This document shows positions 20,166 to 36,140 of a DNA stretch of 48,609 bases, piece by piece. This DNA comes from Bacteroidales bacterium. Its GTDB lineage: Bacteria > Bacteroidota > Bacteroidia > Bacteroidales > VadinHA17. The notes under the pieces are model-generated. The model was not told where the DNA came from and ran no database searches. It saw nothing but the letters and a program-made list of their open reading frames with translations. Within the stretch, counting starts at the first letter, position 1. Every line of letters begins with the position of its first letter. Both the position numbers and the translations under genes were made by a program. The DNA is taken from NCBI GenBank assembly GCA_012514255.1, contig JAAZAP010000244.1, forward strand, positions 1-48,609. The letters are read 5' to 3'.

Positions 20166-20183
20166 TAATTAATAAGTACTTCT

Positions 20184-20216: not shown

Positions 20217-20227
20217 ATTTACTTCTC

Positions 20228-21775
20228 ATGAGAATCCGCCTGACAATACTGCTCGCAACCCTGCTCTCATTCTTCGCATGTACGGAGCCTGAACCGGATC
20301 TGCCCTTAATTGAGACAGATGAAAACGGACTGGCTGAAAATATGTTTACCGAATGGCCCGCCTATGATCCGGTTATCTCCTATAAATTCAGCGATGACTA
20401 TCCTGATTATGAGATGCCAACAAGGAATCTTCCATATACGGGAAGGAACCTCGACTGGACCATGCACGACGGCTGGTGGTCATTCTTTGCAGGGACAAAC
20501 GCCAACCCGCTGGTGACGGAAGAGGCAGTGCAGCCTATGCTTGAACGCCTGAACACTGACTTTGCCTATATACGTGACGTGATGGGCTGGCCTCCTGATA
20601 TGGCAGTGCAGAATGGGTACAGGAGCGCCGTGTTCCTGTACGGGTCAGGGCTCAGTACTGATGATGCCTCAAATACTGAAACAGGAGGATGGCAGAGCTG
20701 GGTCTCAATAAACAATACTGACTGGCCGGTAATCCTTATATCTTATTATCCGATCTACTGCTTTGACCCGGATTGCAATTACCAGGATATTGAATTTCAG
20801 ACTGATGCCGTGGTTCATGAGGGCATCCATACCATGTTCTCATCCATGCCCGGAAGGAATAACAAAGCCTGGTTTCATGAGGGCAGTAACTGCTGGCTGC
20901 AGGCCACCATGGAGCTTGACCGCTCCGGACTGACCGATTACAGCGGATTGAAATTCGGATGGCTGGCCGCAGGAAGCATCATTGCTCCTTTCATTCCCAT
21001 TGAATGCTATGGCGGCTGGCTGGCAGACGGATCTTTCGGAGGACCGAACTATGAAGGCCTGAATGACAATACCCGCCGCATACTGGGAGGAGTGCAGTAC
21101 AGTGAGGTATTCCCCACATTTCTTGCTGAATACCTTGGCTATTACAGCATCCCGTGGATATGGCAGAATTGCCGGGGCATGGTACTCTCAGGTATGGGAA
21201 CCGTTATGGGGGAGGAACAGATGAGACGGCTCATACAGGAGTACCGTGCCAGGCTCTGCCTTGCTGACCTGGGTCGATACGAGGCTGCGGTGATGAGGAT
21301 GTACAATGACAATATGGGAGTGCGCATCTATTCGGAGTTCAGCACCGCACCGGCAGAAGACTGGACCGCCACACCCTATGCAGCAACAATCCGTGATGAT
21401 GATGGCTGGCTTATCCCCGAAGAGAGGACTCTTCCCGGATGGACAGGTGCCAACATTGTTCCGTTGAAAGTTGAGGGTGAGAGCGTGACTGTGACCTTTG
21501 ATGCCATGAATAACAATATGTCCCTGCAGCTCTGCTACCGTACTGCTGACGGCAAGGCTGTCTATTGTGATCCGGTTACCGGAGGTGATTGCACCATTGT
21601 TACCAGAGAACTCAGGCCGGCCAATGATGTGGTTTTTGCTGTCATCACCAACCTTGATTATACCTATTCGGTCATCAACCAGCGCTCCCTGCATTATTCA
21701 TACCGGCTTAAACCCGGTAACGGAGTAAAAGCCACAGCTGATATTCATACTGACTGGTTCGACTGGACCCGCTAG
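20228..21775 (+). CDS. putative gluzincin-type metallopeptidase lipoprotein
   Basis: 515 residues with a short lipoprotein signal (LLSFFAC, Cys18). Residues 197-201 are HEGIH, a match to the zinc-protease HExxH motif, followed 17 residues later by WFHEG (215-219), which resembles the W..EG glutamate-ligand motif of gluzincins. The surrounding sequence (helical, aromatic-rich, ending in beta strands at about 400-515) fits a secreted zinc peptidase with a C-terminal beta domain. From memory it may belong with DUF6055-like proteins, unverified. The gene follows the four-repeat lipoprotein on the same strand beyond a terminator. Its stop codon overlaps the stop codon of the convergent HprK/S26 gene. 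Proteolytic activity is inferred from the motif alone. Confidence 0.65.
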   Translation: MRIRLTILLATLLSFFACTEPEPDLPLIETDENGLAENMFTEWPAYDPVISYKFSDDYPDYEMPTRNLPYTGRNLDWTMHDGWWSFFAGTNANPLVTEEAVQPMLERLNTDFAYIRDVMGWPPDMAVQNGYRSAVFLYGSGLSTDDASNTETGGWQSWVSINNTDWPVILISYYPIYCFDPDCNYQDIEFQTDAVVHEGIHTMFSSMPGRNNKAWFHEGSNCWLQATMELDRSGLTDYSGLKFGWLAAGSIIAPFIPIECYGGWLADGSFGGPNYEGLNDNTRRILGGVQYSEVFPTFLAEYLGYYSIPWIWQNCRGMVLSGMGTVMGEEQMRRLIQEYRARLCLADLGRYEAAVMRMYNDNMGVRIYSEFSTAPAEDWTATPYAATIRDDDGWLIPEERTLPGWTGANIVPLKVEGESVTVTFDAMNNNMSLQLCYRTADGKAVYCDPVTGGDCTIVTRELRPANDVVFAVITNLDYTYSVINQRSLHYSYRLKPGNGVKATADIHTDWFDWTR

Positions 21776-23427
21776 GCCTGTCTCCTCCTGACCCACCCGG
21801 CGACCATCGCTCCCATCCTGTTGATCCACCGGGGCAGGCGGCGGCGGGGAGCAGGGAGCTGCCGGCCCGAGCGGGTCACTGACAGCACCATGCCAATTAT
21901 TGTCTCCCGGCCGGCAGGCTCATCGGCGCGCACGGCGGCGTCACCGCAGGTGACAATACGCTTGCGACCGGAAACTTTCATCACCTTAATGATCCTGTGC
22001 AGAACGAAGCCGCCGTCGCGCCGCAACGCAACTATCTGCCCCGCCGCCGCCTGCCCCGCACCATGCGGGCTGATCACCACCATGTCGCCCGGCCTGATGG
22101 CGGGCCACATGCTGAAGCCCCCGGCAGTGACAGCCACAGTGCGCCCCTCGCCAAGCATCCCGATGACAGTTGCAGCGGCAAGCTGCTTCTCTTCCGTCTC
22201 ACGCAACATAAGGTAATCGCGTATGGTATCATCAGGCAGGAACGAAAGCCTGCTCACCCTCACCGTGGCTGCCAGGTCATCCGCCGCCGCCGCCAGCCTT
22301 GACGCGACCTCCCTGTCCCAGTTCTGCTGGATGCAGTTGGATAGTATCATTGCCACCGCCTCCGCCCCGGCAACAGGCTCGGACACGTTGGCGGCGCCAT
22401 GCCTGATGACCCACAGGTGGTCAAGGGGGGCCGAGCGGGGTTCATCATTGCGGTATACTGGGGTGTTATGCATCACCCAGCTGCCATCCTCAAGGCGCAG
22501 CACCAGCCTGTCGTCGTGTATGACCCTGTCGCCCACCCTGTCAAAGATCCTCGCCAGGGTGGTTTTGCCGCTGCCGGAGCGGCCCGTGAAGAGCCATCCC
22601 CTGCCGCCACACAACACCCCGGAGCCATGAATCATAATCTCTCCGGCCCGGGAGAAAAGAAAGTACAGAAGAAGGCCGTCAAGCGGCCAGGGAAGAGGAT
22701 CTACGGTAATGCCGGATGTGCGGGCGTTGCTATTATCAGCGGAAAGATCAGGAGCGTACCTGTCAGGGATAGGGCCGGTATGCGAATTTACTCCTGGTTT
22801 ATCACCACATGAATCCTGAGGCTGATCATCTGTAGCGTCAGGCCCTGGCAGAGTATCTTCAACGTCAGGCCCTGGCAGAGTATCTTCAGCGTCAAGCCCG
22901 GGCCTGGAACCTGAATCCGGCTTGCCGTGCGGGGTGTCTGAAAAGATCTTCCACCGTTTTTCGCCGTGAGGCATTACAAGCAGGGCCATCCTCTCCGGTT
23001 CCCTCAGGAACACCCGTGCACAGGTCACCCCCTCGCCTGAGAACACCTCCCAGAAGGGCTCACCCGAGTTACGCACCCCGCCCGGCACCTCCTCCATCAT
23101 CTGAGCATCAAACACCTTTTCCACCCCGTCAGGTATCTCACCCGCTCCCGGCTCGACCTCCACAACCAGGTCAGCCTCAGCAGCCAGATAAGACTCTGTT
23201 CCTGCCGCCGGGTCAGACACGGCCCCGGCAGTCCAAAAGGGAATGCCCGTGTCAATCATCCCGGTATCAGCATCGGTAAAAATGCCCGGAGCGGCATCAA
23301 TAAACATAATGTGCCGGTCATCAGATGGTACCTCAAAAGCCCTGAAACGCTCATCAGGCCGGATGGCCACATCCTCCCGCGAACAGAGCCTGATCCTCCT
23401 CCCGGCTATGACGAGATCAACAGTCAC
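21772..23427 (-). CDS. HprK-like kinase / S26 signal-peptidase-like fusion protein
   Basis: 551 residues in three parts. Residues 1 to about 180 are an acidic, poorly conserved region. A linker with three 9-residue repeats follows. From about 255 comes an HprK/PEP-carboxykinase-like P-loop domain with IMIHGSG and Walker A GRSGSGKTT (about 279-287). From about 430 to 520 there is an S24/S26 peptidase-like domain: GGFSMWPAIRPGDMVVI with the SMxP serine, then VLHRIIKV and TCGDA, a pattern like the SipW/ER-type signal peptidases that use a Ser-His dyad. No signal peptide or convincing membrane anchor is visible, which is odd for a signal peptidase. The GTG start overlaps the pqqD-like stop codon (GTGA), implying translational coupling. 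Substrate unknown. Confidence 0.8.
   Translation of the reverse strand: MTVDLVIAGRRIRLCSREDVAIRPDERFRAFEVPSDDRHIMFIDAAPGIFTDADTGMIDTGIPFWTAGAVSDPAAGTESYLAAEADLVVEVEPGAGEIPDGVEKVFDAQMMEEVPGGVRNSGEPFWEVFSGEGVTCARVFLREPERMALLVMPHGEKRWKIFSDTPHGKPDSGSRPGLDAEDTLPGPDVEDTLPGPDATDDQPQDSCGDKPGVNSHTGPIPDRYAPDLSADNSNARTSGITVDPLPWPLDGLLLYFLFSRAGEIMIHGSGVLCGGRGWLFTGRSGSGKTTLARIFDRVGDRVIHDDRLVLRLEDGSWVMHNTPVYRNDEPRSAPLDHLWVIRHGAANVSEPVAGAEAVAMILSNCIQQNWDREVASRLAAAADDLAATVRVSRLSFLPDDTIRDYLMLRETEEKQLAAATVIGMLGEGRTVAVTAGGFSMWPAIRPGDMVVISPHGAGQAAAGQIVALRRDGGFVLHRIIKVMKVSGRKRIVTCGDAAVRADEPAGRETIIGMVLSVTRSGRQLPAPRRRLPRWINRMGAMVAGWVRRRQA
22836..22916 (-). repeat. 27-bp tandem repeats inside the HprK/S26 gene
   Basis: Two nearly identical 27-bp units (22836-22862 and 22863-22889) and a diverged third (22890-22916). 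They encode repeats of the form GPDVEDTLP in the acidic linker before the kinase-like domain. The unit length equals that of the unrelated metH repeat. Confidence 0.85.
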
Positions 23428-23720
23428 GGCTCGCGGAACTGAAGAAATTCCTTTATCTCCCTGAAGAACTCCAGCGCATCTTTTTCGGCAACATCAGGTT
23501 CAACGTCGAACTCTTCCACTATCTTTGACGTTATATCACTGATGGCTCGCTTCCCGTCAATTTTCTCCCAGATAAATGCACCGGTCTCAGTAAGCCTGTA
23601 TAGTGAATCCATATCGGCTATATTGCCGGTCAGCGGTATCAGCAGATACTCGTCGTTGATCCTGCGATAAACAACCGCCGGCGAATGGGAAGGTATGGAA
23701 GAGAGAGTAATCATAATCAT
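23424..23720 (-). CDS. PqqD-family protein (RiPP recognition element-like)
   Basis: 98 residues. The family pattern is clear: a basic/aromatic beta hairpin (VVYRRINDEYLLIPLTG), then SLYRLTETGAFIWEKIDG, and a helix-rich end (ISDITSKIVEEFDVEPDVAEKDALEFFREIKEFLQ). This is the PqqD winged-helix fold, which in characterised systems binds the leader peptide of a ribosomally made, modified peptide; in other loci PqqD-like proteins accompany HprK-like kinases. Start ATG at 23718-23720; a second ATG 6 bp downstream is possible because the promoter box ends only 10 bp upstream. It overlaps the next gene by 4 bp. It is the first gene of a two-gene operon; no radical-SAM partner is visible. Confidence 0.85.
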   Translation of the reverse strand: MIMITLSSIPSHSPAVVYRRINDEYLLIPLTGNIADMDSLYRLTETGAFIWEKIDGKRAISDITSKIVEEFDVEPDVAEKDALEFFREIKEFLQFREP

Positions 23721-23730
23721 TCAATCAACT

Positions 23731-23738
23731 CAAAGATA
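23731..23738 (-). promoter_or_regulatory. pqqD-like operon -7 element (TATCTTTG)
   Basis: Perfect TAnnTTTG match on the minus strand. Its end is only 10 bp from the first possible ATG, so the mRNA would be almost leaderless or initiate at the second ATG (23714). It forms an inverted repeat with the rnr box. Confidence 0.5.
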
Positions 23739-23751
23739 GCCAATTTCGGCC

Positions 23752-23759
23752 TATCTTTG
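23752..23759 (+). promoter_or_regulatory. rnr -7 element (TATCTTTG)
   Basis: Perfect TAnnTTTG match on the plus strand, ending 23 bp before the rnr ATG. It is the mirror copy of the box at 23731-23738; the two are separated by 13 bp. Confidence 0.55.
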
Positions 23760-23782
23760 GAAATCTAAATTAAAGACCAGAA

Positions 23783-25927
23783 ATGTCAAGAAAAAAACAA
23801 CCCGCTAAAAACGGAATTGATCAGAAGAAACTTATTGAGCTCATCATCAAGGTGATGGCAAAGAATCCCAGGCAACCACTTAACTACAAACAGATAGCCT
23901 CACGCCTTCAGTTCACTGAGAAAGAGGAGAAGAGGGCCCTCTCCGATGCCCTCCTGAGGATGAAGAAGGACGGCACCGCCGAGGAGCGGGGCCACGGCAA
24001 GTATATCCTTAAAGCCGTCGGCGGTTATATCACAGGCACCATTGATCTCACCAAGTTCGGCTACGCCTTCGTTATAACTGATGAGATGGAAGATGATGTC
24101 TTTATCGCAGCGCGAAACCTTAACACCGCACTCCACGGTGACCAGGTGAAGGTGCTGCTCTATGCGCGCCACAAGGGCAAACGCCCCGAGGGCGAGGTGG
24201 TTGAGATCATCAGTCGGTCACGCGCCACCTTCGTCGGAACCATCGAACTGACAAAGCAATTCGCGTTCCTCATCCCTGACAACAAGAACATGCCCTTCGA
24301 CCTCTTCATACCCCTCTCCAAACTCAACGGGGCCAAACAGGGACAAAAAGCGGTGGCACGGATCGTGGAGTGGGATCAGCGTTCGCGAAACCCCGTGGGC
24401 GAGATTGTTGAGGTACTAGGCAACCCGGGAGAGAATGACACCGAGATGCACGCCATCCTGGCAGAGTTCGGCCTGCCCAACAGGTTCGAGCCGGAGATCG
24501 AAGCAGCTGCTGAAAAGATTCCCGCTGAGATAACCGCTGAGGATATCGCCGCGAGGCGTGACTTACGCGAAGTACCTACCTTCACCATTGACCCTGAGGA
24601 CGCGAAGGACTTTGACGACGCCCTGTCGGTTGTCAAACTGCCCAACGGCAATATGGAGGTAGGTGTCCACATTGCAGATGTGACCCACTATGTCAGGCCC
24701 GGCTCAGCCATAGAAAAGGTTGCCCAGGAGAGGGCTACCTCGGTCTACCTCGTTGACCGTACCATACCCATGCTGCCGGAGAGACTGTCAAACCATATCT
24801 GCTCCCTTAATCCAGGTGAGGACAAACTCACCTATTCTGCCGTCTTTGAGCTCGATGCTAAAGCCAACGTCATCAGCGAATGGTTCGGGCGAACAATCAT
24901 CAACTCAGACATGCGCTTCTCCTACTCCGAAGCCCAGCAGGTAATCGACACCGGCGAGGGCGAGATGAAGGAGCAGCTGCTGACCCTCCATAACCTGGCC
25001 CAGCTCCTTCGTAGTAAACGCTTCGCCGCAGGCTCATTCGCCTTTGAACGACTGGAGGTCAAGTTCAATCTCAGCGAGAAGGGCGTACCCCTGGGCATCC
25101 TCTTCCGTGAGTTCGGCACAGCCAACCAGCTGATAGAGGAGTTCATGCTCCTGGCCAACAAGCGGGTGGCGGAATTTGTAGGCAGGAAACTGAAGGGAAA
25201 AACATTCGTCTACCGTATCCATGACAAGCCCGATCCCGAGAAACTCAGTTCATTCAGCTACTTCATCAAGCGGTTCGGCTATGAGCTTGATACAGAGAAC
25301 GTAAAGGGCCTCCCGGCCGCCATGAACAAATTGATGGACGAAGTGGCCGGCAAGAAGGAACAGAATATTGTTGAGACCCTCGCCCTGCGCTCAATGGCCA
25401 AGGCGGTTTATTCAACGGATAATATTGGTCATTACGGCCTCGCTTTCAGCCACTACACCCATTTCACCTCACCCATACGCCGCTATCCTGACATGATGGT
25501 GCACCGCCTGCTGACAAAATACCTTGACAAACAGCCGGCACGCGACAATGACAAGTATGTAAAGCTGTGCGAGCACTCCTCAAGGATGGAACGCCTGGCT
25601 ACCGATGCGGAGAGGGCATCAATCAAATACAAGCAGGTGGAGTTCATGAGCGACAAGATAGGGAAGGTTTTTGAGGGAGTCATCTCGGGCGTGACCGAAT
25701 GGGGCATCTACGTTGAGATCATTGAGAACCAGTGCGAGGGAATGGTTGCCATCAGGGAGCTGCAGGACGACTACTTCGAGTACGACGAGGAGAACTATTG
25801 CATCCGCGGAAGGCACTCAGGCAAGGTATATATGCTGGGCGACAAGGTCAGCGTTGAGGTGGTGAAGGCCGACCTGCAGAAGCGGCAATTGGATTACAGG
25901 CTTGCCGACTCGTCTGAAGAGGATTAA
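23783..25927 (+). CDS. rnr: ribonuclease R
   Basis: Processive 3'-to-5' exoribonuclease that degrades structured RNA. 714 residues, in the family range. A basic N-terminus with winged-helix domain (about 10-70) is followed by cold-shock domains (about 75-220), the RNB catalytic domain with the metal-binding DPEDAKDFDDAL motif (about 270-281), HYGLAFSHYTHFTSPIRRYPD (about 550-570), and an S1 domain near the end (GKVFEGVISGVTEWGIYVEI). ATG start at 23783. It is transcribed divergently from the pqqD-like operon and converges on ispG. Confidence 0.96.
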   Translation: MSRKKQPAKNGIDQKKLIELIIKVMAKNPRQPLNYKQIASRLQFTEKEEKRALSDALLRMKKDGTAEERGHGKYILKAVGGYITGTIDLTKFGYAFVITDEMEDDVFIAARNLNTALHGDQVKVLLYARHKGKRPEGEVVEIISRSRATFVGTIELTKQFAFLIPDNKNMPFDLFIPLSKLNGAKQGQKAVARIVEWDQRSRNPVGEIVEVLGNPGENDTEMHAILAEFGLPNRFEPEIEAAAEKIPAEITAEDIAARRDLREVPTFTIDPEDAKDFDDALSVVKLPNGNMEVGVHIADVTHYVRPGSAIEKVAQERATSVYLVDRTIPMLPERLSNHICSLNPGEDKLTYSAVFELDAKANVISEWFGRTIINSDMRFSYSEAQQVIDTGEGEMKEQLLTLHNLAQLLRSKRFAAGSFAFERLEVKFNLSEKGVPLGILFREFGTANQLIEEFMLLANKRVAEFVGRKLKGKTFVYRIHDKPDPEKLSSFSYFIKRFGYELDTENVKGLPAAMNKLMDEVAGKKEQNIVETLALRSMAKAVYSTDNIGHYGLAFSHYTHFTSPIRRYPDMMVHRLLTKYLDKQPARDNDKYVKLCEHSSRMERLATDAERASIKYKQVEFMSDKIGKVFEGVISGVTEWGIYVEIIENQCEGMVAIRELQDDYFEYDEENYCIRGRHSGKVYMLGDKVSVEVVKADLQKRQLDYRLADSSEED

Positions 25928-25998
25928 CCGAATCTCTTGTCTGCCGACTCGTCTGAGACAAATCAGAAGTCGCGGCCTTCCAACCCGCCTGATGAGAA

Positions 25999-27651
25999 TT
26001 AGCTGGATTTCCTGCCGGCCTGGTCACTGCTGATCAGTTCCAGCAGCCTGTCCAGCGCCTCGGCCTCGGGAACATTTTTATATACCGGCTCGGTGCCGCG
26101 ATAGATGTGCACTTTCCCTTCAGCGGCGCCCACATAGCCATAATCGGCTCCCGCCATCTCGCCGGGACCGTTGACAACGCATCCCATGACAGCTATCTTC
26201 ATCCCCGTCAGGTGGGCGGTGGCAGCCTTGACCTTCTGCACAGCCTCCTGCAGGTTGAACTTCGTTCTCCCGCAGGTGGGGCATGAGATGTACCTGGTGC
26301 GGGTGATGCGTGCTTCCGTTGCCTGAAGAATGGAGAAAGCCAGCCTGCGAAGAGCTTCGCCCTGAACGGCCCCTTTATTACTTATACAGAGTCCTGCCGG
26401 ATGCCGTGCAATAAAGAATCTGCCAAGAAGGGTGGCCGCCTCTGTTGCCAGCTGCTCTGCATCATCACAGCTGAAGACCGGATTGAGAAGTTTGTCATAG
26501 GCCTGCATGCCTGCCTTAGTACGGAGCTCAACTGGTGAAACTATCAGGGCCTCACCGGTGAAAGCTGCGCCAGACTCATCTAAAAATTTCATATGAATCT
26601 CCCCGTCCAGGTTCCTGTAAGCACTGCTTTCTTCGGGCAGGCTCTTATCCCCGGGATTATCCCATGACCGACTACTTTCGGATAACTCCCCGGGAGTCTG
26701 CCCCGCAACTAAAGCAAATACCTGCGGGATCCAGCGTTCACCGGCTCTCTGCTGCTCCAGGGGCAGAACGGGATCCATCACCCTCCCTTTCTCCCCGGCT
26801 ATAGCGTTTATAATAGCATGTGCCACAGATATCTCTGCCTCGGGCGGTTCTGACAGCGAGACCCTTACCGTGTCACCTATACCCTCTGCCAGCAGCGTGC
26901 CGGTGCCGGCGGCGGAGATGATACGGCCGTCCTCACCCTCACCTGCCTCGGTGATGCCCAGGTGTACCGGGAAAAACATTCCCTCTTCAGCCATCATCTT
27001 CACCAGCAGCCTGTTAGCCATGACCATTGTGAGGGTGTCTGACGATTTCATTGAGACCACAATTCTCCTGAATCCTTCTCCCCTGAATATCTTCAGGAAC
27101 TCTATAGCCGAGACAGCCATCCCTTCGGGTGTATTCCCGTAGCGGGTCATGATGCGGTCAGAGAGCGATCCGTGGTTCACCCCAATGCGCACCGCAGTGC
27201 CGTATTCCGTACAAATCTTTATCAGCGGCAGCAGTCGCTCCCTGGTGCGCTCCAGCTCGGCCATCCACTCAGTTTCAGTCAGCTCCTGCCTGATGAATGA
27301 AGCCCGTTTGTCAGCGTAGTTGCCCGGGTTAATGCGTACCTTCTCCACGATGCGCGCCGCCGTTTCAGCAGCAGCAGGATTGAAATGAATGTCAGCACAC
27401 AGCGGCGTGTTAAATCCTGCCGCCCGCAGACCGCTCTTAATGGCCGCAAGGTTCTCCGCCTCACGTACTCCCTGCGCCGTCAGCCGCACCAGCTCCCCTC
27501 CCGCTTCAATTATCCGTATGCACTGGCTGACGCTGGCTGCTGTGTCCAGAGTATCGGTATTGGTCATGCTCTGAACGCGCACAGGCAGGTCGCCGCCCAT
27601 GGTGAGGGTGCCAACGCTAATTATATCAGATTTGTATTTCGTGACTTTCAT
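25999..27651 (-). CDS. ispG: 4-hydroxy-3-methylbut-2-enyl diphosphate synthase (long form)
   Basis: Penultimate enzyme of the MEP isoprenoid pathway; converts MEcPP to HMBPP with a [4Fe-4S] cluster. The N-terminal TIM barrel (GDLPVRVQSMTNTDT, LCADIHFNP, VRINPGNYA, RIGVNHGSLSDR) and the C-terminal cluster domain (SCPTCGRTKFNL and MGCVVNGPGE, giving the three Cys and the Glu ligand) are intact. At 550 residues it is the three-domain form seen in Bacteroidetes and plants, though I recall most Bacteroidetes homologues being somewhat longer. The central insert (about 290-400) is poorly conserved and contains a Ser/Glu-rich stretch. It lies 83 bp after cysS on the same strand with no promoter box, so it is likely co-transcribed. 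Confidence 0.95.
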   Translation of the reverse strand: MKVTKYKSDIISVGTLTMGGDLPVRVQSMTNTDTLDTAASVSQCIRIIEAGGELVRLTAQGVREAENLAAIKSGLRAAGFNTPLCADIHFNPAAAETAARIVEKVRINPGNYADKRASFIRQELTETEWMAELERTRERLLPLIKICTEYGTAVRIGVNHGSLSDRIMTRYGNTPEGMAVSAIEFLKIFRGEGFRRIVVSMKSSDTLTMVMANRLLVKMMAEEGMFFPVHLGITEAGEGEDGRIISAAGTGTLLAEGIGDTVRVSLSEPPEAEISVAHAIINAIAGEKGRVMDPVLPLEQQRAGERWIPQVFALVAGQTPGELSESSRSWDNPGDKSLPEESSAYRNLDGEIHMKFLDESGAAFTGEALIVSPVELRTKAGMQAYDKLLNPVFSCDDAEQLATEAATLLGRFFIARHPAGLCISNKGAVQGEALRRLAFSILQATEARITRTRYISCPTCGRTKFNLQEAVQKVKAATAHLTGMKIAVMGCVVNGPGEMAGADYGYVGAAEGKVHIYRGTEPVYKNVPEAEALDRLLELISSDQAGRKSS

Positions 27652-27734
27652 TTTATTAAGTCATTGCAGTGCCGGTGGGCTTCCATGATGAGATCTTTCC
27701 CGAGCTGTTCATCTGTGGCTCCGGGCACTGCCGC

Positions 27735-29204
27735 TCATGCCGTTATCTCCCAGTCGTACCCGTCCTTGCGGTCCTTGACGGTGATACCAAGCTCTGCAAG
27801 CCTGTCGCGTATGCGGTCAGAGACGCTCCACTCCTTCCTCGCCTTGGCCTCCTGCCTGATATCGAGCAAAAGCTTCAGCACCCCGTCAAGCCTTTCCGTA
27901 CCGGCCGATTCCTCAGCCCGGAGACCGAACAGGTCATGAATAAAGACCCTGAAGAGCTCCTGCAGGGACTCGATATCCGCCTTCATCAGCTTCTCCTTGC
28001 CGTCGTTGACCAGGTTGATTATCCTCACGGCGTCAAAGAGCTGCGCTATGGCCACGGGAGTGTTGAGGTCGTCGCTCATTGCCTCGCGGCACTTCGCGGC
28101 GATGCCGCTGACGTCAGCCGTGGAGCTCCCTGAAGGGGTCAGTCCTGCCAGGGTCTTCTCCGCGTTCATCAGCTTTTGCAGTCCCAGCGAGGCTGCCAGC
28201 AGGGCCTCATTGCTGAAGTCGAGTGTGCTGCGGTAGTGTGCCTGCAGCATGAAGAAGCGGATAGTCATGGGCGAGTAAGCTCTTGCCAGCAACTCATGTG
28301 ATCCGCTGTACATCTCCTCCAGGGTGATGAAGTTGCCCAGTGACCGCGCCATCTTCTGCCCGTTGATTGTCACCATGTTGTTATGCACCCAGTAACGTAC
28401 CGGCGCGTGGCCCTGTGCGGCGGTGCTCTGCGCTATCTCGCACTCATGGTGCGGGAAGATCAGGTCCATGCCCCCGCCATGGATATCAAAGGTCTCACCT
28501 AAATATTTTGTGCTCATCACCGAACACTCGAGGTGCCACCCCGGAAAACCCTCGCTCCACTTCGACGGCCATCTCATTATATGTCCCGGTGAGGCTTTCT
28601 TCCACAGGGCGAAATCGAACTGTCCCCGCTTCTCATCCTGTCCCTCCAGGGTGCGACTGTTGGCACGCATATCCTCCAGGATCCTTCCCGACAGGGTGCC
28701 GTAGTTGTGCTCCCTGTCATACTTCTCCACATCGAAATAGACGGAGCCGTTCACCTCATATGCATATCCGCTCCCGATAAGTCGTTCCACCATCTGCTGC
28801 TGCTCGATGATATGACCGGTGGCACGAGGCTCAATGGATGGCGGCAGGGTGTTCAGCTTCTCCATGGCATGATGATAGCTGTTCATGTACTTCTGCACTA
28901 TCTCCATCGGCTCAAGGTGCTCCTGCCTGGCGCGTCTGCTGATCTTGTCCTCACCGCTCTCTTCGGCTTCATTCTCCAGGTGGCCCACGTCGGTGATGTT
29001 GCGCACATAGCGAACCCTGTAGCCCAGGTGCATCAGGTACCTGTAGAGCACGTCGAAGGTGACAGCCGGACGGGCATGACCCAGGTGGGCCTCACTATAG
29101 ACCGTGGGGCCGCATACATACATGCCCGCGAATGGCGGGGACAGTGGTTCAAACAGCTCCTTCCTGCGTGAAAGGGTATTGTATAGATAAAGTGCACTTT
29201 TCAT
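27735..29204 (-). CDS. cysS: cysteinyl-tRNA synthetase
   Basis: Charges tRNA-Cys. 489 residues from the ATG at 29202-29204; a longer open frame to 29405 runs back into non-coding repeat sequence and is not the gene start. Class I motifs: HLGH (the HIGH signature, in [13 protein letters not shown]) and KMARS (the KMSKS signature, in KMARSLGNF). Zinc ligands are in [15 protein letters not shown] and HHECEIAQS. The DALR and anticodon-binding parts fill the C-terminal 150 residues. A promoter box lies 17 bp upstream of the start. First gene of a cysS-ispG unit. Confidence 0.97.
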
Positions 29205-29221
29205 TTCTGAGGCCGTTTGTG

Positions 29222-29229
29222 CAAAAGTA
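29222..29229 (-). promoter_or_regulatory. cysS -7 element (TACTTTTG)
   Basis: Perfect TAnnTTTG match on the minus strand, ending 17 bp before the cysS ATG. It supports 29204 rather than 29405 as the start. Confidence 0.55.
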
Positions 29230-29361
29230 ATGCTTTTAGAGCATAATGGTGTCACAAAACCATCAAGGGCCTCGCAGCGTGGCGGCCGGCGAAAGGAGGC
29301 AACTGGCAGGATTTGCGATCTGCGATTTGTGATTGCCGATTTATGGCCGCAGGTCAGGTTG

Positions 29362-29592
29362 TACAATTCTACCACCTCTACGAGGTGGGTGGGGGTTCCG
29401 GACATCCATGTACAATTCTTCCACCTCTGCGAGGTAGCTTACCTGCAGATTACATCCTATACATTGCCCGTAGGGCATAAAGCATTGTAGAACATTGCGT
29501 TCATGTGTAAGGGATGGCCGTAGGCCATCAAGAATTGTAAAAGCCCCGGGGGATAACCCCCGGGGCAGCGCCGCCGGGAGAAGTCCGGCGAC
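29362..29592. repeat. cluster of short hairpins with shared ACAATTCT-type flanks
   Basis: At least five hairpins occur in 230 bp: CCACCTC-tac-GAGGTGG (29372-29388); CCACCTC-tgc-GAGGTAG, imperfect (29421-29437, approximately); TGCCC-gta-GGGCA (29465-29477); GATGGCC-gta-GGCCATC (29513-29529); and a 10-bp GC stem with ATAA loop (29543-29566). A weaker CGCCGG/CCGGCG pair lies at about 29572-29590. TACAATTCT precedes the first two and its reverse complement AGAATTGTA follows the fourth; AGCATTGTAGAAC lies between. Stems differ while the 3-nt loop is TAC/TGC/GTA, which looks like an interspersed repeat family rather than one terminator. Confidence 0.75.
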
Positions 29593-29842
29593 AATCGCAA
29601 AAAGCGAGGCATCATGCAGCGAGACTGCGCTACTGAAGCGCTTTTTGCCCATTATACTCTAATTCATCTATGCTTTCAGACACGTAGTTTCCATCTCCGT
29701 AACATTAAAAAACCATTCATCTAAATAAACCCCAATTGCGACATCGACCAGGACAAAATTTTTGACTGATATAAATTTAACAAAATATATGGTTAGTCTC
29801 CAAATAAAATTGAAGATTTTTAGTAATAATTTTGACGAAATA

Positions 29843-31138
29843 TCAATCTTCCCGGCTTTTGCTTCCGCGAAGACCTAAAATCCATCCCAGCTTACCCAGC
29901 CTGTGAGGATAGAAAAGCACTGCTCTCAGGGCCGACCTGCAGCCGTACCTGCGCTTCATGAACCCTACGGAGGGGAAGATATCCCCGAGAATGAATATCA
30001 GCTTCTTGCCAGGGCTCCTGAGCGCTTCCAGGTTACGGGTGAACATCTCCCGCTGGCTGATCGATTCTATGGCCCCGGGATACATCAGGTCATTCATGAA
30101 CCCGGCAACAACAGCTTCACCGCTTTCAATTGCGGTCGTGTCATGTGCATCTGATTCACTTATCCGGCTTTCCCCCGGTGTGTCATCGCCTCGCCCCGGG
30201 CCATCCAAAAGTGATCTGATCACTGAGGGCATCTTCACTCCCCATACCTTCTCCATAACGGTAAGCACGGTCCCGGTCTCCTCGGCAATACCAGCTTCCT
30301 GCGCAGCAGCGGGAAGCTCCGGCGTAAGCACCCTGTCTCCATGCCTTGCAAGCAGCAGGTAAATATCCGTCCACAGCCTCATCTGGAACTCACCCTTGAT
30401 ACCGTGCTTGTAGATATGGCCCACCAGCGCGAGGAAAGCAATCATTGGAGGCAGTACCCGCAACGTACCCTTTCCGGCGGTGACTGTCTCCGAGTCAGCT
30501 ATTGCCCTTACAACCATCTCCTCCGCCTCCGGACCGAAGAGCCTGTAGTGCAAATCCACGGAGACACCTCCCCGGTGCAGCTCGGGCAGATGGTTGCCAA
30601 GATCAAGGATGATGTGTTTGTAGAGGGGAGATTTCAGGCGCATCGACCTGAACCCATCCCTGACAAGTATATCTCTGGCTCTCAGTGCATCAGAGGGAGC
30701 TACCAGCAGATCGGCGTCACTCATCTGGCGCAATCCTCTGGAACCGTAAACAGTGTGTTCCAGGGCAAGACCCTTCAGCGCCACCACCCTGATCCCCTCC
30801 CGCTCCAGCAGACCGCACACGGCAGTAGCAGCCTCTGTGATCCACGCCACCCTGGCAATCGATTTGAACCGTAACGCTTCCAGCATTGTCCTTTCTGTCT
30901 CCTGCACCCGGTCCTTCAGTCCAAGATCAGAGATATTCTGCCACACCAGGGCTGCCACACCGTGCCTGACCGCCAGAGAGGCAAAGAGCTGCCATGAGGT
31001 GAATGACTCAAACTCCCGGCTGATCCTCTGCCTTTCCCCGGCGGAAAAGTCTGTCCTGCCAAGCAGCAGAAGTAACCTGACCACCTTCAACAACTCAACG
31101 TTATCTTCAGTCAACAGTATCTCCGCAGGTTCATTCAT
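29843..31138 (-). CDS. NTP_transf_5-like nucleotidyltransferase
   Basis: 431 residues. The nucleotidyltransferase core is recognisable at residues 119-150: VALKGLALEHTVYGSRGLRQ followed by MSDADLLV, the family's LKG...Y....R..SDxDLLV pattern with the paired metal-binding Asp residues. The rest is helical. The family is uncharacterised biochemically as far as I know. From memory, its members occur near lasso-peptide and exopolysaccharide genes together with PqqD-like and HprK-like proteins, and such partners lie 6 kb away here. ATG start overlaps the ABC gene's stop by 4 bp (ATGA), so the two proteins are translationally coupled. Confidence 0.75.
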   Translation of the reverse strand: MNEPAEILLTEDNVELLKVVRLLLLLGRTDFSAGERQRISREFESFTSWQLFASLAVRHGVAALVWQNISDLGLKDRVQETERTMLEALRFKSIARVAWITEAATAVCGLLEREGIRVVALKGLALEHTVYGSRGLRQMSDADLLVAPSDALRARDILVRDGFRSMRLKSPLYKHIILDLGNHLPELHRGGVSVDLHYRLFGPEAEEMVVRAIADSETVTAGKGTLRVLPPMIAFLALVGHIYKHGIKGEFQMRLWTDIYLLLARHGDRVLTPELPAAAQEAGIAEETGTVLTVMEKVWGVKMPSVIRSLLDGPGRGDDTPGESRISESDAHDTTAIESGEAVVAGFMNDLMYPGAIESISQREMFTRNLEALRSPGKKLIFILGDIFPSVGFMKRRYGCRSALRAVLFYPHRLGKLGWILGLRGSKSRED

Positions 31139-33147
31139 CTGTACATCGATTTCTGCCTGGTGTACATATCGTAATATTTGCCTCCTGCTGCCATCAGCTC
31201 ATCATATGTGCCGGCCTCTGCGATCCTGCCGCCGTCAAGAACGATGATCCTATCGGCATCGCGCACATTTGACAGCCTGTGGCTGATGAAGATACAGGTA
31301 CGTCCCCCGGTGATGTTACTGAGATCAGAGAAGATCTCGTCTTCTGAATCGGCATCAAGTGATGAGGAAGGCTCATCGAGTATCAGCACGGGTGACTGGC
31401 GATAGACTGCCCGAGCTATGGCTATCCTCTGCCACTCGCCCCAGCTCAGCTCGCGCCCGCCTTCGGTGTGATGACCCAGCTGAGTATCATATCCCTCCGG
31501 GAGAGCCTCCAGCAGCTCCCGCAAACCTGTTGTTACAGCAGCTTTTCTTAACTCGTCCGAGACATTAGGGGAACTGTCATTTACGGGTTGTTCTGCTTCT
31601 TTCGCGGAACTGTTACTCCCTGGTCGCCCTGCGCGATCACTGCGATCACCTCCATCACCGCGATCACCTCCATCACCGCCGCCATCAGCGCCGTCATCAC
31701 TGCTCCCGAGCCTTATATTATCCCCGGCGCTCAAATAATAGAGCATGAAATTCTGGAACACCACTGAAAAAAGCCTTCGGTATGAGGCCGGGTCAACGGT
31801 GGTGACATCCGTACCGTTGACCATGACACGCCCATCGTCAGGGTCATACAGCCTGCAGAGCAGCTTGACCAGCGTGGTCTTGCCCGAGCCGTTGGGCCCC
31901 ACAATAGCCACCTTCTCTCCCTGTGTGATACGAAGAGTGATATCCTGCAGCGCCGGGCGGACGGCACCGGGATAAGTGAATGACAGCTTCTCTGTGGCAA
32001 TCTCGCTGAACGAGTCCGCCTCAGGCGCCCGCAGCTCACCTGTCATATCCGGCTCCAGGTCAAGGAAGGTGAAGAGATCGCGCAGGAAAATGCTGTTCTC
32101 CGCCAGTCCCGAGTAACCGCTGACAGCATCGCGCAGATACACCATTGCCTGCCTGAAGGCTACCAGGCACATTGCAAGCTCCCCGGCAGTGATTGATGAT
32201 CTGAGATACCCGGAAGTGGCATAGATGATCACCCCGGCAAAAGCCGCTACCTTGAGCAGGGAGGCCAGGCCTTCAGGCAGGATGTTTCTCTTCTCCGTCC
32301 TCAGTTCTGGTTCGCGCGAAGCACGGAAATGCTTCCTGAAGAGCCTGTCAAAGTATCCTCCTAGATCAAAGAGCTTCACCTCCCTGGCCGGCTTCTCGCC
32401 TGTGAGGAGCCAGCTGAAATAGGATGCTCTCCGCGAGTCGGATGTGACCGCTTTCCTTGTCTCATACATCCTTCGTGAATTGCGCACCCTGACAAGCATG
32501 ACGGGAATAAATACCAGGATCACTATTATCAGCGGTATGAGCCCGAAATTCCTCAGCACATAGGCCATGGCAAGAAAAGAGATCACCCCCCTGAGCAACA
32601 GTATGAAGTCAGATACCATTGCAGAGGGCCTCCACGAAATGTCCCTGGCAGCCCTCTCAAGCCTGTCGTGGAACAGCGGATCCTCAAAGAACCTCAGTCC
32701 CAGTCTGCCTGCGTGAGCATGTATCAGTGAGGAGATGTGCCCTTCCAGAAGATAAGAGTGTTTTCTTGTCAGGTACCTGCCAGCAGCGGCCATAAGGTCG
32801 TCGGCCAGCAATGCCAACACAATAGCCACCGTGAGCCAGATAAAAGCAAGCGGTAAAGGGCCGCTGCCGGGTATTCTACCTCCGGAGGAAAGGCCGTCAG
32901 TGCCTCTGTCTCCGGAGAGGCTGTTGGCGCCCCCGCCATCGGCCACACCGGCTATTGACTCACTTACTCCTACGCCAGGATCAGTCACCCCGGTTACCAG
33001 GTCAACATAGTGTCCGATCAGGAGCACTGCCACCAGGGGCAAAAAAGCCCTGACAATAAGTATGGCAGCGGTCATTACCGTCTCCCTGCGTGAGCTGTCT
33101 GCCAACAGCCCCAGGGCCCGCCTCAAGATGTTATTCTGTGATGTCAT
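31135..33147 (-). CDS. ABC transporter, fused permease and ATPase, exporter type
   Basis: 670 residues. The N-terminal exporter membrane domain (hydrophobic segments at about 25-50, 95-115, 185-220, 300-320) is followed by an ATPase domain: Walker A GPNGSGKTT (about 415-423), Q-loop VVFQNF, signature LSWGEWQR (LSGGQ variant with Trp), Walker B with LILDEPSSSLD, and the H-loop ISHR. No C39 peptidase domain is present. Two low-complexity insertions stand out: a Gly/Ser-rich loop between the first two membrane segments (about 53-90), and an Asp/Gly/Arg-rich stretch of about 50 residues in the ATPase helical subdomain (about 477-529). Coupled to the nucleotidyltransferase. Substrate unknown; a peptide is the inferred guess. 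Confidence 0.88.
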   Translation of the reverse strand: MTSQNNILRRALGLLADSSRRETVMTAAILIVRAFLPLVAVLLIGHYVDLVTGVTDPGVGVSESIAGVADGGGANSLSGDRGTDGLSSGGRIPGSGPLPLAFIWLTVAIVLALLADDLMAAAGRYLTRKHSYLLEGHISSLIHAHAGRLGLRFFEDPLFHDRLERAARDISWRPSAMVSDFILLLRGVISFLAMAYVLRNFGLIPLIIVILVFIPVMLVRVRNSRRMYETRKAVTSDSRRASYFSWLLTGEKPAREVKLFDLGGYFDRLFRKHFRASREPELRTEKRNILPEGLASLLKVAAFAGVIIYATSGYLRSSITAGELAMCLVAFRQAMVYLRDAVSGYSGLAENSIFLRDLFTFLDLEPDMTGELRAPEADSFSEIATEKLSFTYPGAVRPALQDITLRITQGEKVAIVGPNGSGKTTLVKLLCRLYDPDDGRVMVNGTDVTTVDPASYRRLFSVVFQNFMLYYLSAGDNIRLGSSDDGADGGGDGGDRGDGGDRSDRAGRPGSNSSAKEAEQPVNDSSPNVSDELRKAAVTTGLRELLEALPEGYDTQLGHHTEGGRELSWGEWQRIAIARAVYRQSPVLILDEPSSSLDADSEDEIFSDLSNITGGRTCIFISHRLSNVRDADRIIVLDGGRIAEAGTYDELMAAGGKYYDMYTRQKSMYR
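31620..31710 (-). repeat. 18-bp tandem repeat in the ABC ATPase gene
   Basis: CGATCACCTCCATCAC with a CG spacer repeats twice head to tail, with degenerate copies on both sides. It encodes the GGDRGDGGDRSDR-type insertion. A simple-sequence expansion kept in frame inside a nucleotide-binding domain. Confidence 0.75.
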
Positions 33148-33163
33148 TCAGCGGTGATATACA

Positions 33164-33171
33164 CAAAGATA
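33164..33171 (-). promoter_or_regulatory. ABC-nucleotidyltransferase operon -7 element (TATCTTTG)
   Basis: Perfect TAnnTTTG match on the minus strand, ending 16 bp before the ABC transporter ATG. It is the same octamer as the pqqD-like operon box and also implies a very short leader. Confidence 0.5.
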
Positions 33172-33345: not shown

Positions 33346-36066
33346 ATGAAAAGGACCCGTCTGCTATTGATAGTTTTATTGCTCATTGTGACCGAGATAC
33401 AGGCACAGATAAGTGGTAGTGGTACTCTCACTGATCCGTATCACGGTATTAATTCCGGCAACTTCACAATAAGCGGCATCAAATATTTCAATGCTAATAT
33501 CGGCGTTTCATCCGGAACACTGGAGCTTACACCGGGTTCCGTACTGATAAGCATTAACAGGATCGCATGCATAATTATCAGTGGAACAGGAGCGTTGGTT
33601 ATAAATGGTTCAGAAGCCAGTCCAGTAACTATTTCTGCAGACCCCGACCAGGATGGTATCATAGGGGAAAGCAGTGAATTCTGGGGAAATATTCAGCTTA
33701 ACTCAACCGGACAGAACACTATCAATCACGCCATCATCGAAAACGGACGTCGGGTACGTTTCGGCATATTGGGTGGAGGAATATATGCCACCTCAGGCAC
33801 ACTGAATATATCCAACACCACTATCAGGAACTGCTATGCCTTCAAGGGTGGGGGCATCTACATGCTGCCTGCTGCAACAATTAATATATCACAGACTTTT
33901 TTCGAGAACAACAGAGCCTATGAGCAGGGAGGTGCGTTGTTCCTTGAACCAGGTTCTGCCCCGGTGATCACTTCCTGTCTGTTCTACAACAACCAGGCGC
34001 AGTCAGCCACTCTCAAGGGAGGGGCAATCACCTCATTATCGTCATCTCCTGTTGTTGTTAACTGTACTTTTACAAATAATCAGTCTGCTGCGGCTGACGG
34101 AACTACCTTTTACCTTGAGAACTCACCTAGTGCAAAAATTGTAAATACGGTCATCTGGGGAGGTTCATCCCATATCGGACTTTCAGGTACTCCTTCAACA
34201 GTATTTGACCTCTGTGCCATAGAGGGCGTATCATACTCCGGGTGTCTCACCCTCAGCAGTATCAATACCGATCCTGACGGCCCAAATTTCACAGATCCCG
34301 CCAGCGGCGATTTTTCTCTGGCATTTGCCTCTCCGATGCGCGATTCCGGTACAGAAAGTTACCCGGGATTGGAGATACCGGAACTTGATATCCTGGGACG
34401 CGGCCGGGTGGGCGTTATTGACAGGGGAGCCTATGAGATGTTATACAGCCGTTGGCACGGAGGGAACATCTCATGGAGTGATCCCTCCAACTGGGATGCA
34501 GGGATTACACCCGGGTCAACCAGTATAATTATCCCTTCGGGTATGCCTACTTATCCGACCAATTCGCCGGGTCCTAATTTCATCCTTAATTCAGGATTGG
34601 AAATGATACTGTATCCCGGAGCAAAAGTAACCTTCAACTTTCTCTTTAATAACGGCAGGATAGACCTGCTCTCTGATGCCACAGGCATCTCTTCAATGAT
34701 CGTTGACAGATACACAGGTTTGTCAGGCAACCTAAACATCGACTTACACCTGACAGCAGGCCCGGCAGGCATCGACTGGTGGCATTACATCACAACCCCC
34801 ATTACAATGTCAAAAACGGTCTTCACGGATATCGAACCGGAAATGCTGGCACGTTATGACGAAACCAGGGTAATTACTGATGTTGTTGACGGCTGGCAGT
34901 GGCATGACGGTTACGGTGGCACTACCCCCTTCAGTGAACTGAAAGCAAAGGAGGGTTATGATGTGAGTGTTGCGACTGATGTGACAATGACCTTCAGGAA
35001 CCTCAAATCAATGCTTACCACCCTGGGTACTATTAACCTGCCATTCAGCGGATCCGGCGGTGATACAACCATTTACGGATATTCTCTCCTCGGTAACTCA
35101 CTAACATGTGGTATTAACTGGGACAGGGTAACCTACTCGCATGATCATACCTTGATCAGGCACGCCTACTATGTCAGAACAGCATCAGGTGAGGAGGCTT
35201 CTTATGTCGACGGTGTGGGAACCAACGGTGCCACAGCCCACATAGCTCCCTTGCAGGGGTTTTTCGTGCGCACAAGAGCAACAGGAACCTATATCACAAT
35301 CCCTCTCAACGCCCGCGAACACAATGCTGCCCCGAGATTCAAATCAGCAGACCAGATTTCCCTGGTCAGACTTGCCCTTTCATCAGCCGCAGCTCGTGAT
35401 GAGATGGTAATACGGTTTGAACCGGAAGCCACCTTTAGCTTCGACGGCCTTCTTGATGCAGGTAAACCATTCAGCCACCAGACAGGGCAACTGAAGATTT
35501 ATTCATTGATGAAAGGTGAGGATTATTCAATCAATACAATCCCCTGGCCATCAACAAAGACGAGAATCCCTCTCGTCCTCCATACTCCTGAAGCAGGGAC
35601 ATATAATATTACCCGGAGCCAACTGCAGAACACTGGCGAAACCGGAATCTTTCTTACTGATCACCTCACCGGCAGCAGTATTGACCTGACTGCAACCGAC
35701 TCCTACACATTTTCTGCGCTTCAGGGAACAATCACAGGCCGGTTTGCCCTGACCATTATCCCTGCAGAGAAGAGTGTGGCCGCTGCCCCGGCAGAGACAC
35801 CTGAGACAGATGATGTCAACCTGCTTAAGATCTATGCCGCCCAGGGAAGGGTATGTATCCTGCCGCAGGGAAACGACTGGGATGGTGTCAGGGGAAAGGT
35901 CAGGATATTCGATATAACCGGAAGAATTATACTAGTATCCGAATATGAGCGTTTTAACTCAGGGGAACTGAAAGAATTTTACCCCGGTGATTCCGGAAAC
36001 CTCCTTATTGTTGAGGTGACCGCAGGAGATAAAAGATACCTTGAAAAGGTAGTGCTGTCAAGGTGA
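33346..36066 (+). CDS. secreted beta-helix protein with T9SS type A C-terminal domain
   Basis: 906 residues. Signal peptide at 1-22 (LLLIVLLLIVTEIQA). Residues about 60-290 form a right-handed parallel beta-helix (repeated GGGIY/GGALF turns with ISNTTIRNC, INISQTFFENN, NCTFTNN). A choice-of-anchor-Q-like ending follows (FTDPASGDFSLAFASPMRDSG ... VIDRGAYE). A long beta-rich middle is typical of T9SS cargo. The last 80 residues or so resemble a type A sorting domain (VRIFDITGRIILVSEYERF ... LIVEVTAGDKRYLEKVVLSR). Exported to the periplasm by Sec and then across the outer membrane by T9SS, probably with removal of the tail. Polysaccharide lyase or adhesin roles are both possible; I see no catalytic motif. 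It has its own promoter and diverges from the ABC operon. Confidence 0.85.
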   Translation: MKRTRLLLIVLLLIVTEIQAQISGSGTLTDPYHGINSGNFTISGIKYFNANIGVSSGTLELTPGSVLISINRIACIIISGTGALVINGSEASPVTISADPDQDGIIGESSEFWGNIQLNSTGQNTINHAIIENGRRVRFGILGGGIYATSGTLNISNTTIRNCYAFKGGGIYMLPAATINISQTFFENNRAYEQGGALFLEPGSAPVITSCLFYNNQAQSATLKGGAITSLSSSPVVVNCTFTNNQSAAADGTTFYLENSPSAKIVNTVIWGGSSHIGLSGTPSTVFDLCAIEGVSYSGCLTLSSINTDPDGPNFTDPASGDFSLAFASPMRDSGTESYPGLEIPELDILGRGRVGVIDRGAYEMLYSRWHGGNISWSDPSNWDAGITPGSTSIIIPSGMPTYPTNSPGPNFILNSGLEMILYPGAKVTFNFLFNNGRIDLLSDATGISSMIVDRYTGLSGNLNIDLHLTAGPAGIDWWHYITTPITMSKTVFTDIEPEMLARYDETRVITDVVDGWQWHDGYGGTTPFSELKAKEGYDVSVATDVTMTFRNLKSMLTTLGTINLPFSGSGGDTTIYGYSLLGNSLTCGINWDRVTYSHDHTLIRHAYYVRTASGEEASYVDGVGTNGATAHIAPLQGFFVRTRATGTYITIPLNAREHNAAPRFKSADQISLVRLALSSAAARDEMVIRFEPEATFSFDGLLDAGKPFSHQTGQLKIYSLMKGEDYSINTIPWPSTKTRIPLVLHTPEAGTYNITRSQLQNTGETGIFLTDHLTGSSIDLTATDSYTFSALQGTITGRFALTIIPAEKSVAAAPAETPETDDVNLLKIYAAQGRVCILPQGNDWDGVRGKVRIFDITGRIILVSEYERFNSGELKEFYPGDSGNLLIVEVTAGDKRYLEKVVLSR

Positions 36067-36132: not shown

Positions 36133-36140
36133 TATATTTG
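36133..36140 (+). promoter_or_regulatory. -7 element of the small gene (TATATTTG)
   Basis: Perfect TAnnTTTG match ending 21 bp before the ATG at 36162. The in-frame TTG at 36138 lies inside this box, which argues against it as a start codon. No clear -33 element. Confidence 0.45.

What the first reader, a model, noticed from the sequence alone, without database searches (positions are those of the whole stretch)
21772..33147. Split RiPP-like toolkit: PqqD-like, HprK-like/S26 fusion, NTP_transf_5 and ABC exporter
Seen: a PqqD-like gene coupled to an HprK-like/S26 fusion, and 6 kb away an ABC exporter coupled to a NTP_transf_5-like gene. The two blocks flank rnr and cysS-ispG, and both first genes share the same -7 octamer TATCTTTG with a very short leader. 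Known: in lasso-peptide and some exopolysaccharide/exosortase loci, PqqD-like, HprK-like, nucleotidyltransferase and ABC genes co-occur. Inference: the two blocks form one pathway that recognises, modifies, cleaves and exports a peptide or cell-surface component. There is no radical-SAM, lasso cyclase or transglutaminase-like protease here, so it would differ from described RiPP systems.
Basis: partly seen in the sequence, partly recalled or inferred. Interest (0 to 1): 0.75.

Follow-up and report, generated by a model that had tools for sequence, protein, structure and literature searches.

The report
Split Bacteroidota phospho-peptide (RiPP) pathway
Two separated gene blocks and a tiny gene 3 kb away look like one assembly line that recognises, phosphorylates, cuts and exports a small peptide, a kind of system so far reported from another bacterial phylum, and here it often sits beside genes for large secreted surface proteins.

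Summary
The blocks encode a PqqD/RRE protein, an HprK-like kinase fused to a SipW-type peptidase, an MsbA-like exporter and an NTP_transf_5 enzyme: the five functions of the LPP (linear polyphosphorylated peptide) RiPPs published in May 2026 and said there to be restricted to Bacillota. In a bridging relative (L014) PqqD, kinase, peptidase, exporter and NTP_transf_5 are contiguous; in nine more distant loci the precursor lies between PqqD and kinase. Kinase and precursor co-occur: 20 and 20 of 198 genomes, 18 shared; the same 3 of 296 in a phylum sample. The peptidase is fused to the kinase here and to the exporter in two other genomes. The shared TATCTTTG is the general Bacteroidota -7 box (rnr has it too). 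Unexpectedly, 18 of 26 assessable precursor genes follow a gene for a type IX secretion cargo, and 6 of 6 in two genomes not used for training. Chemistry, cleavage site and role are inferred, not shown. New variant of a known kind.

The parts
23424..23720 (-). PqqD-family RRE protein, 98 aa (LppB-like)
   Evidence: PF05402 E 8e-15; weak sequence matches to TbiB1, PbaB1 (9x90) and LppB (9x8z), E 0.003-0.03; the residue matching LppB D70 is D81, conserved in 14 of 15 rows; the one matching LppB N33 is T44 here and in 4 close relatives, N in the other 10
22192..23427 (-). HprK-like kinase part of the fusion (residues 1-412)
   Evidence: H267, K288, D305, D306 identical in 73 of 73 rows; AlphaFold2 model pLDDT 80, HprK/P best PDB matches
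21868..22167 (-). S26/SipW-type peptidase part of the fusion (about residues 421-520)
   Evidence: PF00717 E 3e-6; SEC11 match; S439, H477, D502 in 72 of the 72 rows that reach them
21772..23427 (-). whole kinase-peptidase fusion gene, 551 aa, overlaps PqqD by 4 bases
29843..31138 (-). NTP_transf_5 enzyme, 431 aa (LppN/PadeN-like)
   Evidence: PF14907 E 5e-42; D141 and D143 invariant in 11 rows; model pLDDT 87, weak PDB matches to pol-beta-type nucleotidyltransferases, best E 0.002
31135..33147 (-). MsbA-like ABC exporter, 670 aa
   Evidence: PF00005 E 8e-30; TIGR02203 MsbA is the best NCBIfam model but far below its cut-off (257 bits, cut-off 602)
36162..36341 (+). precursor peptide, 59 aa; leader KKRRYVRPAVIRIELDNSVSLVMMT, Pro-rich core ending SPFSSPFSDKPFS
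33346..36066 (+). secreted 906-aa protein with type IX (T9SS) sorting-like C-terminus, 95 nt upstream of the precursor; may or may not belong to the system
   Evidence: TIGR04183 only sub-threshold in the window (17.2 bits, cut-off 23); orthologue L024 above it (27.2 bits); spacing
23731..23738 (-). -7 box TATCTTTG of the PqqD block (general promoter element)
33164..33171 (-). -7 box TATCTTTG of the ABC block (general promoter element)
36133..36140 (+). possible -7 box TATATTTG of the precursor, 21 nt before its ATG
   Evidence: TAnnTTTG is not over-represented in the window (18 found, 14.8 expected)
23783..29405 (.). rnr (+), ispG (-), cysS (-): interposed genes, not part of the system; their order is kept in relatives

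Best explanation
A dispersed, LPP-like RiPP pathway. The PqqD protein (RRE) binds the YVRPAV leader of the 59-aa precursor encoded at 36162-36341 and presents it to the fused kinase-peptidase. The HprK-like part phosphorylates a hydroxyl residue near the leader-core junction; the tethered S26 part then cuts off the leader, by the spacing known in LPP after S23 (Y+15), alternatively after T28 (Y+20). The NTP_transf_5 enzyme adds a further group and the ABC protein exports the product. Shown by sequence: the parts, their catalytic residues, the leader motif, the conserved arrangement, the co-occurrence. Inferred by analogy with LPP: RRE binding, phosphorylation, cleavage, export. Unknown: what NTP_transf_5 adds, the final structure, the role.
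For: Unsplit operons in L014 (PqqD-kinase-peptidase-ABC-NTP_transf_5) and distant genomes; precursor between PqqD and kinase in nine loci (L056, L058, L062, L070, L072, L146, L148, L149, L159). Co-occurrence of kinase and precursor: 20 and 20 of 198 genomes, 18 shared (Fisher 2e-21); with the window peptide alone as query 14 of 16 (Fisher 4e-15); the same 3 of 296 in a phylum draw, one of them G001. Catalytic residues conserved. Peptidase fused to the kinase in the window clade and to the ABC exporter in L152 and L156. LPP precedent with the same five functions, experimentally shown to phosphorylate and cut a YxxP peptide.
Against: No experiment. The precursor gene is 3 kb from the exporter and 12 kb from PqqD here, and 4 of 15 relative genomes have no precursor match and 2 only chance-level ones (some are small bins). 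Beyond YxxPxV the leader differs from the LPP consensus (D at Y+11, ISLVMM[ST]). The residue matching LppB N33 is Thr in the window clade. HprK and signal-peptidase models match below their cut-offs, and the peptidase half has no match among the 50 PDB rows shown. Two kinase genomes (G053, G127) lack a precursor match and two precursor genomes (G138, G178) lack the kinase.
Confidence: 0.82

Rival explanations
1. The kit phosphorylates and cuts another substrate (a protein or a lipid-linked surface component), and the 59-aa peptide is a regulator or companion.
For: In the window the peptide is not next to the kit; the NTP_transf_5 model has weak resemblance to FKRP, a transferase acting on glycans (function recalled). 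In half of the 18 shared genomes kinase and precursor are not adjacent (8 of 18).
Against: In nine distant loci the peptide lies between PqqD and kinase; the leader carries the RRE-binding motif; kinase and peptide are present and absent together.
Confidence: 0.09
2. A phosphorylated lasso-peptide (paeninodin-type) pathway whose cyclase and B2 protease are encoded elsewhere in the genome.
For: Paeninodin-type clusters share HprK-like kinase, NTP transferase, B1/RRE and exporter (stated in PMC13381572).
Against: No cyclase or B2 gene was noticed in the window ORFs; the leader uses YxxP and the kit carries a SipW-type peptidase as in LPP; the 59-aa core is Pro-rich. The rest of the genome is not held and I did not search relatives for a cyclase.
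Confidence: 0.05
3. An exosortase/exopolysaccharide-type HprK cassette (HprK_rel_A or B) acting on a surface polysaccharide system.
Against: 17.2 and 19.4 bits against cut-offs of 200; no exosortase or polysaccharide cluster seen beside the kit in the window; a dedicated YxxP peptide is present.
Confidence: 0.02
4. The two blocks are unrelated neighbours.
For: They are separated by rnr, ispG and cysS, and the shared octamer is not specific.
Against: Contiguous in L014, L058, L072, L151 and L152.
Confidence: 0.02

Closest known systems
Linear polyphosphorylated peptides (LPP; lppAKBSDN of Paenibacillus alginolyticus DSM5050), PMC13381572 (sections 6, 7, 12 and passages read)
   Same: Discrete RRE, HprK-like kinase, archaeal/SipW-type peptidase, NTP transferase, MsbA-like exporter; YxxPxV leader; no cyclase. 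Peptidase S-H-D spacing 38/25 here, 39/25 in LppS.
   Different: Bacteroidota instead of Bacillota; kinase and peptidase fused and kit split in the window clade; leader with D at Y+11 and ISLVMM[ST]; Pro-rich, conserved core; precursor often beside a type IX secretion cargo gene; several precursors in some genomes. Common origin was not tested.
Paeninodin-type phosphorylated lasso peptides (recalled; summarised in PMC13381572)
   Same: HprK-like kinase, NTP transferase, B1/RRE protein and ABC exporter.
   Different: No lasso cyclase or B2 protease seen in the window; YxxP not WxxP leader; a SipW-type peptidase.
Peptidase-containing ABC transporters (PCAT, C39 type; recalled)
   Same: In L152 and L156 a leader-peptidase-like domain is fused to the front of the exporter.
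   Different: The domain is S24/S26-type, not C39, and a separate kinase is present; in the window the peptidase is fused to the kinase instead.

Membership tests
LPP (PMC13381572) | Five core functions together: RRE, HprK-like kinase, SpI-type peptidase, NTP transferase, MsbA-like exporter | tested here: met
   Window; contiguous in L014, L058, L072. Among the 20 kinase genomes of the order sample the fetched neighbourhood holds S26 in 17, PqqD in 15, ABC in 14, NTP_transf_5 in 9 (several contigs end early)
LPP (PMC13381572) | Peptidase triad (LppS S29, H68, D93) | tested here: met
   S439, H477, D502 in 72 of 72 rows reaching them; match of positions by spacing only
LPP (PMC13381572) | RRE leader-contact residues N33 and D70 of LppB | tested here: inconclusive
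   D in 14 of 15 rows; N in 10 of 15, Thr in the window and 4 close relatives
LPP (PMC13381572) | Leader consensus YxxPxVLxHQxIxFETxxS | tested here: not met
   Only YxxPx[VIL] is shared; the rest is replaced by a Bacteroidota consensus
LPP (PMC13381572) | Polyphosphorylation of a core Ser and RRE-dependent cleavage | not testable with these tools
   needs mass spectrometry
LPP (PMC13381572) | Common ancestry with the Bacillota LPP genes | not tested
   no Bacillota LPP gene set was fetched
Paeninodin-type lasso peptides | Macrolactam cyclase and B2 protease in the cluster | tested here: inconclusive
   none noticed among the window ORFs, but not all ORFs were profile-scanned and no whole genome was searched for them
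HprK_rel_A / exosortase-type cassette | Kinase above the HprK_rel_A (TIGR04352) cut-off | tested here: not met
   17.2 bits, cut-off 200

The most novel reading that the evidence does not exclude
In Bacteroidota this kit makes cargo-paired phospho-peptides: a precursor is encoded with a particular type IX secretion cargo, and the modified, exported peptide serves that cargo, for example as a covalent or docking partner on the cell surface. It would be a RiPP whose job is finishing surface proteins rather than warfare or signalling. Basis: 18 of 26 assessable precursor genes in the order sample lie downstream, on the same strand, of a gene for a T9SS type A cargo (directly or past a PqqD gene), and 6 of 6 in two phylum genomes not used for training.
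Probability: 0.3. Interest if true: 0.9.

Novelty: new variant of a known kind. Interest (0 to 1): 0.72.

Why it matters
It extends to Bacteroidota a RiPP type that its 2026 discoverers call restricted to Bacillota, and gives an unannotated peptide family (no Pfam or NCBIfam match for 20 members) a likely maker and a testable chemistry; a named strain with the kinase exists (Paludibacter propionicigenes WB4). Natural kinase-peptidase and peptidase-exporter fusions suggest that phosphorylation, cutting and export are coupled. If the link to type IX secretion cargo is functional, it raises a new question about how these surface proteins are finished.

Tried and rejected
Shared octamer as a link between the blocks: rejected; it is the general -7 element and also precedes rnr.

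Lasso and exosortase readings: see rivals.

Cargo module: the cargoes share a domain of about 350 aa before the sorting domain. I tested whether it is confined to kit-bearing genomes; it is not (116 of 198 genomes), so it adds no support for the cargo link.

T9SS as a marker of kit genomes: all 20 genomes checked have T9SS sorting domains, including five (G017, G022, G025, G029, G031) in which neither kinase nor precursor profile matched. No discrimination.

Rows dropped: precursor matches at E 0.1 and worse (both places of G005, that of G008, and second places of G001, G002 and G006); kinase matches between 1e-10 and 1e-20 (11 of the 31 genomes). These 11 I take for other HprK-like proteins without having checked them.

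Bias. Profile A5 was built largely from genomes of the same 198, so one search is not independent; others (window peptide alone; phylum draw sharing only G001) are cleaner. Related genomes are not independent events, so the Fisher values overstate certainty. The Y and P of the leader are invariant partly by construction: I picked peptides by a [YFW]..P or Y..P pattern; the G151 peptide has F in place of Y and was not in the 37. The binomial for the cargo link (18 of 26, 4e-12 at 11% background) rests on my own estimate of gene numbers and on the first-look counts. Of the 8 'no' cases 3 were profile-scanned and 5 judged by eye from the listed ORFs.

PqqD against the PDB also hit synthetic repeat proteins at similar or better E-values; PF05402 carries that assignment.

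Papers: PMC13381572 sections 6, 7, 12 and passages, supplements not read; PMC10352776 passages only; PMC7366714 one passage; PMC12618676 abstract and outline. No paper on a Bacteroidota version of this kit showed up in the listings; most subscription journals and bioRxiv are not in that library.
Full report
WHAT IS THERE. The window holds PqqD (23424-23720, -), a 551-aa fusion (21772-23427, -), an ABC exporter (31135-33147, -) and an NTP_transf_5 protein (29843-31138, -) as described. Both pairs overlap by four bases. The fusion is an HprK-like kinase followed by a SipW/SEC11-type peptidase: a profile of 26 relatives matches SEC11 and HprK in the PDB, at weak E-values of 0.001 and 0.006, and the AlphaFold2 model (mean pLDDT 80) has HprK/P as its best PDB matches, followed by PEPCK; no signal peptidase is among the 50 rows shown. 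H267, K288, D305 and D306 are identical in 73 of 73 aligned relatives, and S439, H477 and D502 are present in the 72 of 72 rows that reach them. The most hydrophobic 19-residue stretch averages 1.2, too low for a membrane helix by the usual rule (recalled), so the peptidase is probably cytoplasmic.

THE BLOCKS ARE ONE SYSTEM. A genome scan gave 15 relative loci. In the 9 that span both blocks (L001, L002, L006-L011, L013; ABC cut by the contig end in L009 and L013) the order ABC, NTP_transf_5, cysS, ispG, rnr (reverse), PqqD, fusion is kept; five others are too short to tell. In the divergent L014, PqqD, kinase, peptidase (separate genes there), ABC and NTP_transf_5 follow one another right after cysS-ispG-rnr. 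The split is most simply a local rearrangement and the fusion a feature of this clade.

THE PRECURSOR. 39 database proteins match at E <= 1. In G001, G002, G006 and G007 it lies about 3 kb beyond ABC as in the window, judged from contig coordinates; the fetched stretch L074 confirms this for G006. Used alone against 198 genomes of the order it finds 16. In nine distant loci (L056, L058, L062, L070, L072, L146, L148, L149, L159) the peptide lies between PqqD and kinase. Over 37 distinct leaders, D at Y+11 is constant, Y+15 is S in 34 (A, N, M once each) and Y+20 is T (23) or S (14); Y and the P at Y+3 are constant too, but partly because I selected on them.

CO-OCCURRENCE. In the 198 genomes the kinase profile (E below 1e-40) is in 20 and the precursor profile in 20, 18 shared; precursor only G138, G178; kinase only G053, G127 (Fisher 2e-21). 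With the window peptide alone 14 of 16 have the kinase (Fisher 4e-15). In 10 of the 18, kinase and precursor are within about 0.6 kb. Among the 20 kinase genomes the neighbourhood examined holds the S26 domain in 17, PqqD in 15, ABC in 14 and NTP_transf_5 in 9 (several contigs end early, and one search lists ABC only below E 1e-40). A draw of 296 genomes of the phylum gives kinase in 3 and precursor in the same 3, one being G001 (without G001, 2 and 2 of 295, Fisher 2e-5). In the other two, PqqD, kinase and S26 are neighbours (L142, L145).

FUSIONS. In G027 (L152) and G053 (L156) the S26 domain is fused to the front of the ABC exporter. One domain fused to the kinase in one lineage and to the exporter in another argues that all three act on one substrate.

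HOW IT WORKS. PMC13381572 (sections 6, 7 and 12 read; passages) reports LPPs in Bacillota: RRE LppB, kinase LppK, peptidase LppS, exporter LppD and NTP transferase LppN, with the leader motif YxxPxVLxHQxIxFETxxS, cleavage after the T that sits at Y+15, and phosphates on core Ser3 (Y+18). The present kit has the same five functions, nearly the same spacing of the peptidase triad (38/25 against 39/25) and the YxxPxV start. By analogy the RRE presents the leader, the kinase phosphorylates and the peptidase cuts, perhaps after S23, which sits at the LPP -1 position and is nearly always small; T28 is the alternative. The NTP_transf_5 model resembles nucleotidyltransferases, and more weakly FKRP (a glycan-modifying phosphotransferase, recalled); all matches are above E 0.001. 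Every chemical step here is inference.

TYPE IX SECRETION LINK. Of the 31 precursor places, 26 have a readable upstream side. 18 follow, on the same strand and within about 0.8 kb, directly or past a PqqD gene, a gene whose product ends in a T9SS type A sorting domain (TIGR04183, E at most 0.01): G001, G041, G044:C3, G100:C2, G027:C567, G158:C21, G144, G138, G042:C11, G042:C97, G050, G027:C134, G177, G207, G185, G151, G172, G105. Eight do not: G100:C158, G156:C86 and G178 (scanned: M23 peptidase, alkaline phosphatase, OmpA-like) and G042:C78, G044:C10, G156:C29, G158:C8 and G092 (judged by eye). Five end at contig edges. In G234 and G324, not used to build the profile, 6 of 6 do, although their cargoes include paralogues. 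The window's own cargo scores below the family cut-off (17.2 against 23 bits), its orthologue in L024 above it (27.2 bits). The ~350-aa cargo module is common in genomes without the kit too (116 of 198 genomes have it). The adjacency is far above chance, but its meaning is open.

NOVELTY. I found no report of this kit in Bacteroidota in the listings; a Bacteroidales RiPP-mining paper (PMC10352776) has no occurrence of HPr, signal peptidase or nucleotidyltransferase. PMC13381572 calls LPPs restricted to Bacillota, though it also says its hits are 'predominantly' from there, and its supplements were not read; the string 'bacteroid' does not occur in its main text. The full LPP leader motif is not met and common origin was not tested. 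I therefore say that it works like LPP and file it as a new variant of that kind.

Noticed in passing
window 6070-21775: A block with hybrid sensor, SusC/SusD-like, DUF1680-like and two secreted proteins lies between metH and the kinase-peptidase gene. L006 and L015 share its near end, whereas metH follows the kinase-peptidase gene directly in L005, L008, L010, L011, L012 and L013, so it looks like a lineage-specific insertion.
   Followed up: partly
window 36668-48532 (-): A 3954-aa repetitive surface-protein ORF, converging on the precursor gene, whose C-terminus looks like a T9SS type B signal by eye; it starts near the window end and may be longer.
   Followed up: no
window 29360-29435: Two 27-nt copies (93% alike, 49 nt apart) of a hairpin-like intergenic element between cysS and NTP_transf_5; a similar copy lies in L016.
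   Followed up: partly
L152:1710-3956 and L156:1176-3599: S24/S26-type peptidase fused to the N-terminus of an ABC exporter, reminiscent of peptidase-containing transporters but with another protease type.
   Followed up: partly
G100, G042, G027, G234 (places): Single genomes hold 3 to 5 precursor matches for one detected kinase, with differing cores.
   Followed up: partly
window 27735-29405 (-): The cysS ORF as listed starts about 37-67 codons before the region aligned in most relatives, so its true start is probably downstream of 29405 on the minus strand.
   Followed up: no
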